64,000 nucleotides of DNA from Dermatophagoides farinae. Its lineage: Eukaryota; Arthropoda; Arachnida; Sarcoptiformes; Pyroglyphidae. This document shows, piece by piece, positions 39,281 through 50,327 of the stretch. The notes beneath the pieces were generated by a model. The model was not told the origin of the DNA and ran no database searches. It saw only the letters and a list, made by a program, of their open reading frames with translations. The position numbers and the translations under genes are program-made. Where the stretch lies: NCBI RefSeq assembly GCF_024713945.1, contig NC_134677.1, forward strand, positions 6,389,001 through 6,453,000. The letters run 5' to 3'. Within the stretch, counting starts at the first letter, position 1, and every line of letters begins with the position of its first letter.

Positions 39281-41764
39281 CGGTGATGATGATGAAAATG
39301 ACAAAAATGGCCAAACAAGATTATTATCGAATATCATGTCATCAGATTCGTTTCAGAAACAATATATCACACATATAAAACAAAAAATATGAGAGCCAAA
39401 TAGATGAAGGAAAAAAATCATCGCCACCAATCCCATCAACGATCAATTCGACTATGTTCCCATTTGGATAAACAAGTAATATTTGTTTGATTTCATTAAA
39501 TATTTTTGTGTTTAGTCGAGTTTGTTGTTATTTGGTTGTAACTGTTTATTTGTTCGTATTTTCGACCAACAGCTAGACACAGACAGTGATATACTTTGAC
39601 ATCAATTTTTTGTGACAAAGTATCATTGGTGACATTTCGGGTCAATAATAGATTTTGAAACAAAATAAAATACAAGAGAAAAATAGAGTAACGATTTGGG
39701 TCCGTTTGTTTATTCCCGAATAATGACAGAGATGAAAAAAAAATAAAAGAGAAACTTGCTGACATGATCTTTCTTTTTTTTTTTTGTTCTTTGTACTTGT
39801 AATCGGTTGCAACCGAATTGTCTTTGATGGTTTTTCTTTTCTTTCCTTCACCATATGCACTTTCGTTTACGTTGAGAGATAACATGAACTCTATGATTTT
39901 TTTTCTCGCCTAAAATATTTTACAATCATATAAGTACCAATGCCAATTCAATGAAAGCTCATTTCAATTTTTTGTTTTTGTTTTTGTTTTTTTTTCATAA
40001 ATTGTTCCAAATTAATTTATTTAAGTCGGTGTCAAGGTGTCAAATCTCAATCGTGATCATTTCACGAGATTTGATAATAATTTCTCTCTACACATCAAAA
40101 GAGTATGGCCCGAAAAAATTATTATCAACAAAATATAGAAAACAAAGATAATAACCAAAATTCTATGTGACAATTGTTGTTTCGAAAATCATTCAATTGA
40201 GTTATGATTTCCAAACTTTCATTTCTTTGTTGTTAATTAATTAATGATTTATATATAATAATAATATAATAATTTTATCATAGTCATCATCATCATCATC
40301 ATCGTTTCAAGAGTTTAATAGAATACAGAAACACCGGGAAATTTATTATTTATTAAACAATCGATCCATGTTTGCCAACATGTTAGAAATATGATGTGTT
40401 GTGTTGAGTTTTAAACTATCACATCATCAAAAACGATGACTTAGAATATAATAGGATGTAGGATAAAAAAGACGGATGACATGACACTTTTTTTTTCTTT
40501 ATTGATATTTATTATTTGATAATTATGGTTCATATATTGTTTAGGCCAAGAACAAAAAAAAAAAAAAAAAGATAGAGAGAAGAAAACACAAAAACATGAA
40601 TAAAGCAATACAAGAAACAATACAATGCAAATAGTGTTGTTTGATTTCGAAAGAGTTATTACATAATATGTAATGAATGAATTATATGTTAAATGAAAGC
40701 ATATGGACAATAATAATGTTCATTTCCGTGTGTATATTATGTTTGAGTGAGTGTATTCGATGTTCAGTCATTTCAATTTAAATCAATTTTGGATCAATCG
40801 ATTCAGTAAGAAGAAAAACGAAAAAAAAATTAGTCATGGCAAACCTTTTTTGTAGAATGAAAACTCTATTGTATTCTATACACACATTTGGGCGTAGATA
40901 AAACTAGGTGAAACATTACATAACACGTGTATTGTATTTTGAAAATATTTTTTTTCTTTGTTTTTTACTTTTATCGTCCCCTCATCCATATATTTTTCGT
41001 TTGTTTGTTGTTGAACAATGAATCCACATGAATGAGTGAATGAATGAATGAATGTTGTAAGCAACCAAAATATCATAAAAACATTAATTTCTCCAATTCA
41101 AGTGATTATAATATGATTCTTATATATCAATGCAACAAACGAGTTAAAATTGAAATTCAATCATGCATAAAATTTGTTTTTTTGCGCTTTTTCTTGGTGA
41201 CGAAACAAATTTACAATTATCCTCTATATATTGATGATAATATTAAAAGTAATTAGAATGATGAATGATATGAGGCTGTTATGTGAAGATGTGGCAAACA
41301 CAACCAAATTTTTGCAATAGTATCATGTAGTTTTGTTTCAATTCATTCAGAGAAAGAGAGAGTAATTTGAAAGAGAAAGATATGTTTTGGTTGCAAAATT
41401 TGTTCAAAATTTTTTTGACGTTAAAATCTTTGGTCAGAAACGGAAAATAAAAAGAAACCCTGAAAACAATCATCTAATCATAACTATTTCTCAAAGTAAT
41501 GGATTAAATTAGTTTTGTTTGAAACAACAAGAGTAAATTACCAATCACGGGAGAGTTCAAAGATTAATATCATTGGTAATGAAAGCTATGGTTTAGATGG
41601 ACAACGATATATTATCAATGAATGGGGATGAAAATAAAATTATCTCAAAGTCACTTAATTCACAACCTTAATAAACATTTTGACTTTTGTGTTTCATAAT
41701 AGGAAAAAGAATACTAATCGATTGGTCCATTTTGGTCGTTCAGATTGAATCATAGATCAAACTA
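39096..41764. other. Spacer between MFSD6 and astacin genes
   Basis: AT-rich spacer with a TGA-triplet array at 39247-39294, TTTTTG repeats near 39965-39990, a poly-A tract near 40555-40570, GAAT repeats near 41035-41053 and many T-runs. Reading frames are low-complexity. It includes the astacin promoter and the MFSD6 3' UTR. Confidence 0.4.
39247..39294. repeat. TGA trinucleotide repeat
   Basis: About 48 bp of TGA/ATG triplets with one CGG interruption. Read on the minus strand it produces a spurious poly-His reading frame. Confidence 0.9.
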
Positions 41765-48006: not shown

Positions 48007-48859
48007 ATGGCTGAAGAAATCAAAACTTTTACATTGACTGAAGTTGCCGAACATAATGAAAAGAAATCCGTTTGGATCATTATCCATGATTGCGTTTATG
48101 ATGTGACTCCATTCCTTGATGAGGTTTGTTATTTTTTTTTCGAATATTGGTTTTCAATATAAATTTAAAAAAAAATTCAGCATCCAGGTGGCGAAGAAGT
48201 TCTAATCGAACAAGCCGGTAAAGATGCAACCGAATCATTCGAAGATGTGGGCCATTCTACCGATGCTAGAGATATTATGAAAAAATATAAAATTGGTGAA
48301 TTATGTGAGGTATGTGTGAAAAATTTTATCATATCATTGAGGACAATAAATTTATTTTTCCTTGTTCTCATTTTTTTTTATAGGCGGATAAAAAGAAAAC
48401 AAAAAAAGTTGAGGTGAGCAACATATATGTTTTGCATGTCATTTTTTTTCCTTATGGAACTCTAACATTATCGATTAATATTATATTATTTGATTAACAA
48501 TTATAATTTCCGTGAGAACAATAGTTATATTGGGTGGGGGGGATGTGTGAAATATTTTTGTCATAGGGTTTTTTTTTGATTCAAATATTCATTGATTATG
48601 ATCATGCATGTGTTTCTAATTGGTCTTTTAAAAATATTTCATTTCACAAACAAAAGTGAAAAACATTTTGCAAATGACTAACTTTGTTTTTTGTTATCAT
48701 CTTACCTTGCCCGTTTTTGTTTTTTTTTTGCTTACTTCACACTTCACAACATCTTTCATTTTTCAACATTATGAAATGATATAACTGGATTATATTTGAA
48801 AAAAAAATTAGAAACCTAATAACGGTGGACCAGGCAAAAAGAACTGTATTGTCATTTAG
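48007..48859 (+). CDS. CYB5: Cytochrome b5, alternative short isoform ending in a CaaX-like CIVI
   Basis: Exons: 48007-48123, 48181-48309, 48384-48413, 48812-48859, all phase 0, giving 107 residues. The haem domain is identical to the tail-anchored form. The alternative last exon follows an ATTAG acceptor and encodes [15 protein letters not shown] and a stop. Cys-Ile-Val-Ile fits a CaaX box; with Ile as last residue, geranylgeranylation would be favoured by general CaaX rules. The preceding GKK is the kind of basic stretch seen near prenylated tails. If both exons are used, the same haem domain would be membrane-bound by a helix or by a lipid. The acceptor is flanked by A-rich rather than T-rich sequence, so usage is less certain than for the anchor exon. 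Confidence 0.65.
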
Positions 48860-49361
48860 GATGACTGTAATTCATTCTATCTACTACTATCGATTCGTGA
48901 GATGTGACTATCTATTTTTTTAAAAAATATTAAACAATTCAAGATTATATAGTTTTTTTTTAAAAAAAACAAGAAAAAAAATTAAAATATTTTTTTTAAA
49001 TATCCAAAAATCATATCTTATCGTCAATTCGAGAGTATATAAAAGAGAATGTGAGAAATATTAATAGCAATATAGGAATGAATATGTTTCAAAATCATTT
49101 TTGTTGTTGTTGTTGTTGCTGTATTACCCAAAGTTGTTAATAATATAATATAAAATAATTACATATATATCCATATGTCCATCTATACATATTCAATCAA
49201 TCAATCAATGATTGAATTTTTTTTAGGAAAAGACAATTTCATGGTCCGATCCGAAAAACAATGGCAATTCAAGCGATTGGATGACCTGGACGATTTCTAT
49301 TGTTATTGCATTGGTTCCTATAGTTTTATATCGAATGGGCTATTTTGGTTCAAACAAATAA
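48007..49361 (+). CDS. CYB5: Cytochrome b5, tail-anchored isoform, 136 aa
   Basis: Small haem protein donating electrons to fatty-acid desaturases, P450s and other ER oxygenases. Exons: 48007-48123, 48181-48309, 48384-48413, 49227-49361; all joins are phase 0. The haem domain has the axial His of HPGGEEVL and the second His of GHSTDAR, preceded by [10 protein letters not shown] and followed by YKIGEL. The last exon encodes [10 protein letters not shown], then a hydrophobic helix [20 protein letters not shown] and four more residues (GSNK), the standard C-terminal ER or outer-mitochondrial tail anchor. Total length equals a typical membrane cytochrome b5 (about 134 aa). This exon lies 367 bp beyond an alternative last exon at 48812-48859, so the two isoforms share the first 92 residues. 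In the first frame of the region an unrelated longer reading frame obscures this exon; the anchor is in a different frame. Confidence 0.9.
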
Positions 49362-50327
49362 ACAGTTGTTCAAATCATCATACCTATATAGAAGAAAAAC
49401 AAGCACAATGAATACTAAAAGCAAAGCCAACTTTATTTTTATCTCTACTAATTCACAATTATTAATGAAATTATCATCATTGGCGAAATTCAGGAAAAAA
49501 AATTGTCATTAGAAATATTCTAATTACCATTGTTTTTCAAGATTATTACGACATTTGTTGTATAAAACAGAAAAAAATTTGTTGAAAAATATTCAAATCA
49601 ATAATAAAATAAATACTAAATGATAATAATGAAATTTTTATTTTTTTTATAATTAATCCAATAAAGAAAAATATTGTAATGTTGAAAATGATAATGATGA
49701 TCCAAGTTGTTTTTGCTATTTTTTTCGCTCGGTCAAAAATTGTACTTTTGTTGCATTTAATAAGTACAAAAATACATTTGTTGCCAATATTTTTGTTCAA
49801 ATAAAATTCAAGTTCAAGTGATTAGCTGTTTCTGTTTGATAATGAAATCGATGCTAACGATGATGATGATGATAATGGGATGTATCAAAATGTTTCCAGC
49901 ATTGATGTGATTTTCCAAACCGCTTCCAATATTGTTGATTATCTGATAAATTTTGAGAAAGAGGGAGAAAGAGAGAAGACAGATCTGCAAAAGAAAACTT
50001 GAAAACCTAATGCTAAAGTATAATCCCCTTTGAGATAGCCTGAATTTTTTTAGGTCAGAAAAAAAGTAGCCTACTAATTCTTTCGCTACCTAGAATTTTC
50101 CCTTTCCCTGATTTATTATTAATCAAACCCTATCAGTTTAAATCAAAAAGCTGGATATTTATCGAAATAAAAATGATCAAGAAACACCGAACGAAAATAT
50201 GAATAAGGATGGTCGATTAATGATTAGGCTTCAAAATATATAAATATTTTTTTCTCCATCTTTCAATGGCCTTTGAATGACCCAAAAAAATAATAGGGAC
50301 CGATGAAATCAAAATTGATGAATCAAC
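49362..50327. other. Spacer between cytochrome b5 and Acinus genes (convergent)
   Basis: Contains the 3' UTRs of two convergent genes. AATAAA occurs right after the cytochrome b5 stop. Otherwise AT-rich with GAT triplets near 49858-49875. No coding sequence was recognised. Confidence 0.45.

What the first reader, a model, noticed from the sequence alone, without database searches (positions are those of the whole stretch)
48384..49361. Cytochrome b5 with two alternative last exons: CaaX-like tail or membrane tail anchor
Seen: after the exon ending at 48413, two downstream exons both start with AG acceptors in phase 0. The first (48812-48859) ends the protein in Cys-Ile-Val-Ile and a stop. The second (49227-49361) encodes a hydrophobic helix of about 20 residues and a short polar end, the normal cytochrome b5 anchor. 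Known: cytochrome b5 is tail-anchored, and a soluble isoform arises by alternative splicing in mammals; C-terminal CaaX boxes are prenylated. Inference: splicing would switch one haem domain between helix anchoring and lipid anchoring, possibly changing its membrane and partners.
Basis: partly seen in the sequence, partly recalled or inferred. Interest (0 to 1): 0.72.

Follow-up and report, generated by a model that had tools for sequence, protein, structure and literature searches.

The report
Mite cytochrome b5 alternative lipid-anchor tail
In the American house dust mite, the gene for the electron carrier cytochrome b5 may offer two alternative endings, the usual membrane-spanning tail or a short tail that could be tagged with a lipid; the short ending is written in the DNA but no transcript has yet shown that it is used.

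Summary
Exons 48007-48123, 48181-48309 and 48384-48413 encode a cytochrome b5 haem domain. Phase-0 reading after AG at 48812 gives [19 protein letters not shown] (107 aa); after AG at 49227 it gives the normal transmembrane tail (136 aa), which aligns to a known cytochrome b5 tail. The genome is Dermatophagoides farinae. A strict CaaX tail with nearby lysines is rare by chance: 0.1% of 4000 shuffled introns, and 1 of 552 real tiles, that one being this exon. Codon usage is coding-like but not decisive; the acceptor is weak, eighth of 21 AGs in the intron. The mite has prenyltransferase-type and ICMT-type genes, and its Rap2-like GTPase ends in CTII. No transcript or relative's sequence could be examined; my searches found no paper on a CaaX cytochrome b5. 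I rate a used, prenylated isoform at 0.42; the main rival is a chance open frame. If real, it is a new variant of a known kind: splice-selected membrane anchoring, as in OAS1 and SLMAP.

The parts
48007..48123 (+). Cytochrome b5 exon 1, ATG at 48007, 39 codons, donor GAG|gtttgt
   Evidence: PF00173 match
48181..48309 (+). Exon 2, 43 codons, carries both candidate haem-ligand histidines (H40 of HPGG, H64)
   Evidence: that these histidines are the ligands is recalled from mammalian cytochrome b5
48384..48413 (+). Exon 3, 10 lysine-rich codons ([10 protein letters not shown]), donor GAG|gtgagc
48812..48859 (+). Candidate alternative last exon: [15 protein letters not shown] and stop TAG; acceptor ...aaattag|AAACC
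   Evidence: no transcript evidence
48929..48934 (+). ATTAAA, possible poly(A) signal for the short form, 70 nt after the stop (another at 48981); no AATAAA between 48860 and 49226
   Evidence: hexamer matches only
49227..49361 (+). Normal last exon: transmembrane tail anchor [44 protein letters not shown] and stop
49603..49665 (+). AATAAA hexamers at 49603, 49608 and 49660, possible poly(A) signals of the long form
   Evidence: hexamer matches only

Best explanation
The one gene of ordinary cytochrome b5 type found in D. farinae has two mutually exclusive last exons. Splicing from 48413 to 49227 gives the ordinary 136-residue tail-anchored protein, by homology an ER protein. Splicing from 48413 to 48812, with cleavage and polyadenylation before 49227 (perhaps at ATTAAA 48929), gives a 107-residue form with the same haem domain, a lysine-rich linker and a C-terminal CIVI box. 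Geranylgeranyltransferase I or farnesyltransferase would prenylate the Cys, and ICMT would methylate it after removal of IVI. The polybasic, prenylated tail would hold the haem domain reversibly on cytosolic membrane faces, possibly the plasma membrane, rather than fixing it in the ER. The DNA anatomy is shown; splicing, prenylation and location are inferred.
For: Both tails are in phase after AG. A strict CaaX plus lysines arises in 0.1% of 4000 shuffled introns and in 1 of 552 tiles, this one. Codon score +1.6 bits against a null mean of -3.1 (19 of 239 null stretches reach it; 64% of 329 coding stretches do, these being the training frames themselves). The normal transmembrane exon's own acceptor is also weak in the same model (2.57 against 1.73), and A-rich acceptors occur elsewhere, including this gene's first intron. 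Matches to prenyltransferase beta-type (PF00432, 9 matches at 5 places, 3 of them on C1 and C7), alpha-type repeats (9 matches at 3 places) and ICMT (2 matches at 1 place). A Rap2-like GTPase (L034) ends in CTII. GGTase-I can take Ile at X (PMC11304957 passages), and Ile is stated valid for both enzymes (PMC1175975 passages). KKxCIVI with stop TAA or TAG occurs once in the genome, here.
Against: No RNA evidence. Conservation could not be tested. The acceptor ranks eighth of 21 AGs in the intron and lies below all 32 training acceptors (lowest 3.6); AGs before 48567 (6.76) and 48525 (4.02) score higher than either last exon. No AATAAA follows the CIVI exon before 49227. Loose CaaX with K/R occurs in 4 of 552 tiles. 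The backward control pattern also hit once on each strand, so one hit in the genome is what chance gives. Leu is preferred over Ile at X by GGTase-I. Prenylation predictors were not run and RCE1 was not searched.
Confidence: 0.42

Rival explanations
1. The CIVI frame is a chance open frame in an 813-nt intron and is never spliced; only the tail-anchored form is made.
For: Short (15 codons); loose CaaX endings occur in 2.4% of shuffled introns and 19 of 552 tiles; the acceptor ranks eighth of 21 AGs and lies below all 32 training acceptors; no AATAAA; no cross-species support obtainable.
Against: The full combination (strict CaaX, lysines) is at 0.1% per shuffled intron and found once, here, in 552 tiles; codon use is coding-like; it falls in a gene whose product needs a C-terminal membrane anchor.
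Confidence: 0.41
2. The exon is used but not for prenylation: either a cytosolic cytochrome b5 like the mammalian soluble form (recalled), or a cassette exon ending at a donor-like GTGAGA that begins at 48897 and lowers the amount of the anchored form.
For: A stop codon in any included exon gives a soluble haem domain; GTGAGA is at 48897; the hexamers for a terminal exon are weak.
Against: It does not explain a strict CaaX at the exact C-terminus with lysines before it.
Confidence: 0.14
3. Another last exon or acceptor is the real alternative (for example the higher-scoring AG before 48567), and CIVI is incidental.
For: The AG before 48567 scores 6.76 in the small acceptor model, the highest of 21.
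Against: Its frame gives [30 protein letters not shown], in which I see no anchor signal.
Confidence: 0.03

Closest known systems
Tail-anchored microsomal cytochrome b5 (CYB5A/CYB5B family)
   Same: Haem domain and, in the long form, an alignable C-terminal membrane tail
   Different: The proposed short form replaces the tail with a CaaX box; known soluble forms (recalled) have no lipid anchor
OAS1 p46 (human), PMC8357416
   Same: A splice-site choice makes an isoform that is prenylated and sent to endomembranes (abstract and section headings seen)
   Different: Different protein; there the other isoform p42 has no membrane anchor (recalled), here it has a transmembrane anchor
SLMAP alternative tail anchors, PMC2712456
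   Same: Alternative splicing supplies two different C-terminal membrane-targeting tails (abstract and passages)
   Different: Both tails are transmembrane helices
Arabidopsis G6PD5 splice forms and PGL2 CaaX, PMC9478949
   Same: Enzymes of one redox pathway placed on the ER by splicing or by a CaaX box (passages)
   Different: Splicing alters the N-terminus; the CaaX is on another protein
NADH-cytochrome b5 reductase N-myristoylation
   Same: A partner of cytochrome b5 targeted through a lipid (only reference titles seen)
   Different: Myristoyl at the N-terminus; not cytochrome b5 itself

Membership tests
Cytochrome b5 haem domain (PF00173) | Match to the family profile over nearly its whole length | tested here: met
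   6.1e-29 (short) and 1.2e-28 (long), positions 1-73 of 74
Cytochrome b5 haem domain (PF00173) | HPGG motif and second haem-ligand histidine | tested here: met
   H40 (HPGG) and H64 (VGHS), both in exon 2 and so in both forms; ligand role recalled
Tail-anchored cytochrome b5 | Single C-terminal transmembrane helix with a short end | tested here: met
   Long form only: hydropathy peak 1.81 from residue 115, aligned to 2m33 through residue 129
CaaX-prenylated proteins | C-terminal Cys-aliphatic-aliphatic-X, X accepted by FTase or GGTase-I | tested here: met
   CIVI at the exact end of the predicted protein; Ile can be accepted
CaaX-prenylated proteins | Prenylation machinery in the organism | tested here: met
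   Family matches only: PF00432, PF01239, PF04140; RCE1 not searched; which beta subunits are present was not resolved
CaaX-prenylated proteins | The protein is made and carries the lipid | not testable with these tools
   No RNA, protein or labelling data available
Alternative last exon | Transcripts joining the shared donor to each acceptor | not testable with these tools
   No RNA data; only acceptor scores, eighth of 21 for this AG
Alternative last exon | Conservation in related species | tested here: inconclusive
   No relative confirmed in viral contigs or genome contigs, which by their descriptions hold viral and prokaryotic DNA

The most novel reading that the evidence does not exclude
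A cytochrome b5 that is switched by alternative last exons between a fixed ER transmembrane anchor and a reversible prenyl plus polybasic anchor, moving one electron carrier to another membrane and other redox partners. If conserved in mites or wider arthropods, it would be a lipid-anchored branch of the family that none of my literature searches found.
Probability: 0.38. Interest if true: 0.68.

Novelty: new variant of a known kind. Interest (0 to 1): 0.46.

Why it matters
Cytochrome b5 is a textbook tail-anchored protein that supplies electrons to desaturases and P450s at the ER (established knowledge). A prenylated form would show that the same haem domain can be sent elsewhere by splicing, would link electron supply to the mevalonate pathway, and would give a clean natural comparison of two ways of holding one domain on a membrane.

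Tried and rejected
Relatives: a protein search for the short form in viral contigs (35 pattern matches, none confirmed) and genome contigs (206 pattern matches, none confirmed). By their descriptions these hold viral and prokaryotic DNA, and near relatives of the window's genome may be left out, so this says nothing about conservation. A DNA search of the own genome found the region itself and one 30-nt match at query 712-741, which is a GTT-type simple repeat. The Cyt-b5 family search gave 8 matches, two being exons of this gene; the other six were read as open frames and judged by eye, not by a test, to be other proteins.

An origin of the CIVI exon by copying a GTPase tail was considered: the tail pattern occurs once in the genome, so no donor was seen. 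A shared NNG stretch in the two tails was noticed but is too short to argue for duplication.

Opposite strand: no frame longer than 46 codons, stop to stop, was listed on the minus strand across the last intron (frames of 25 or more); not pursued.

Literature: searches listed no paper that I could recognise as describing a prenylated or CaaX cytochrome b5. Only titles, abstract starts and, for five papers, passages were seen, with the outline of one more; one search listed 15 of 74 papers. Subscription journals are mostly not held.

I lowered the main confidence from 0.45 to 0.42, the novel case from 0.40 to 0.38 and the interest from 0.47 to 0.46, and raised the chance rival from 0.38 to 0.41, for that reason.

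Full report
What is there. The window holds a cytochrome b5 gene on the + strand: exons 48007-48123, 48181-48309 and 48384-48413, all multiples of three, followed by two candidate last exons that both continue in phase 0. From 48812 the reading is [15 protein letters not shown] and a stop; from 49227 it is a 44-residue tail with a hydrophobic helix and a short polar end. The spliced proteins are 107 and 136 residues. Both match the Pfam Cyt-b5 family over positions 1-73 of 74. The long form aligns with the 134-residue cytochrome b5 of PDB 2m33 from residue 3 to 129, the membrane tail included, so the 49227 exon is the ordinary anchor.

Where it is. The assembly has 62,435,336 bases in 22 contigs. 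This agrees with the 62.43 Mb reported for a chromosomal D. farinae genome, whose abstract places Der f 1 on chromosome 2 (PMC11074847, outline and abstract). A 68-residue stretch from contig C2 is identical over 68 of 68 residues to the Der f 1 chain 5vpk (148.8 bits; Der p 1 chains about 123). I take the organism to be Dermatophagoides farinae. The Cyt-b5 family search gave 8 matches, two of which are exons of this gene. The open frames at the other six were read, and by eye none is an ordinary small tail-anchored cytochrome b5; this was not tested formally.

Is the CIVI frame more than chance? In 4000 dinucleotide shuffles of the 813-nt intron, at least one in-phase tail after [CT]AG ended in a loose CaaX in 2.4%, a strict one in 0.95%, a loose one with at least two K/R in the seven residues before it in 0.275%, and a strict one with them in 0.1%. 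In 366 real tiles of the same length the counts were 7, 2, 1 and 1, this exon included. With further loci, using 54 of 69 sources (15 dropped as overlapping loci or from contigs outside C1-C10), the counts were 19, 3, 4 and 1 of 552, and the single strict case with K/R was this exon. The other two strict cases were at window 40898 and in L047. The tiles cover both strands and include coding DNA.

The codon score of the 15 codons is +1.6 bits. Null stretches after [CT]AG have mean -3.1 (19 of 239 reach the observed value), and 64% of 329 coding stretches reach it, although these come from the frames used for training. The acceptor scores 1.73 in a small model of 32 acceptors, eighth of the 21 AGs in the intron; the transmembrane exon's scores 2.57, third of 21; AGs before 48567 and 48525 score 6.76 and 4.02; all 32 training acceptors score at least 3.6. 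The model therefore ranks even the real last exon low, and gives the CIVI exon no support. A-rich acceptors do occur in this genome, for example in the gene's own first intron. Between the CIVI stop and 49227 there are ATTAAA at 48929 and 48981 and some TATAAA and AATATA, but no AATAAA; AATAAA occurs three times after the transmembrane exon.

Could the tail be prenylated? The genome has matches to the protein prenyltransferase beta-type domain (9 matches at 5 places, of which C1:5.98 Mb, C7:2.33 Mb and C1:3.50 Mb are on large contigs), to alpha-subunit repeats (9 matches at 3 places) and to ICMT (2 matches at 1 place). RCE1 was not searched. Thirty Ras-family loci, the best of 112 matches, were read forward from the match to the first stop; many such stops lie in introns. 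Two of the 30 readings end in Cys-x-x-x and two more in CC or CxC. One of the first two, L034, ends in GCTII, and its only solved relative below E 1e-70 is RAP2A (E 2e-77). So an ending of the same CaaI kind sits on a standard type of prenylation substrate in this mite. In print, GGTase-I is said to modify Caa[L/F/I/M/V] (PMC11304957, passages), and Ile and Val at X are said to be valid for both enzymes, although Leu and Met are preferred by GGT1 (PMC1175975, passages). The short form carries net charge +6 from residue 83 on, which would favour acidic membranes by analogy with polybasic GTPase tails (recalled).

Most likely working. I favour a gene with two alternative last exons: the long one placing the haem domain in the ER by a helix, the short one placing it on membranes by a prenyl group and lysines. 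The DNA anatomy and the identity of the long form are shown. Use of the short exon, prenylation and location are inferred. I give 0.42 to the whole, because rarity at the level of one intron still leaves room for chance across a genome, the acceptor gives no help, and nothing on transcripts or conservation could be tested.

Rivals. An unused chance frame (0.41) is about as likely. A used exon without prenylation is next (0.14): a soluble form, or a cassette exon ending at a donor-like GTGAGA that begins at 48897.

Known work. Splicing that yields a prenylated form (OAS1 p46, PMC8357416, abstract and headings; its CaaX also named in PMC13372824, passages) and splicing between two tail anchors (SLMAP, PMC2712456, abstract and passages) are known. 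Placement of pathway enzymes on the ER by splicing or CaaX is known in Arabidopsis (PMC9478949, passages). A CaaX cytochrome b5 did not appear in the listings of searches; of the papers in those listings I opened passages of three and the outline of one. In two of them the cytochrome b5 mentions were titles in the reference list about its reductase. This makes it a new variant of a known kind, if real.

Noticed in passing
L020 (G000:C21:124980-128951), and contigs C16, C17, C19, C20: Small contigs of the assembly carry Ras-family genes, several of them in one open frame (L035 on C20, L039 and L040 on C19, L042 on C16; L036 on C17 has stops), and on C21 an 836-aa open frame with a prenyltransferase toroid domain; they may belong to another eukaryote in the culture.
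   Followed up: partly
L034 (G000:C4:1159917-1160396): The D. farinae Rap2-like GTPase ends in CCNGCTII, a CaaX with Ile at the last place.
   Followed up: partly
window 40898-40939: Another in-phase tail after a [CT]AG ends in a strict CaaX (IKLGETLHNTCIVF); it has no lysines just before it and was not examined further.
   Followed up: no
window 48567: The AG with the best acceptor score in the last intron opens a 30-residue frame with no resemblance to a cytochrome b5 tail that I could see.
   Followed up: no
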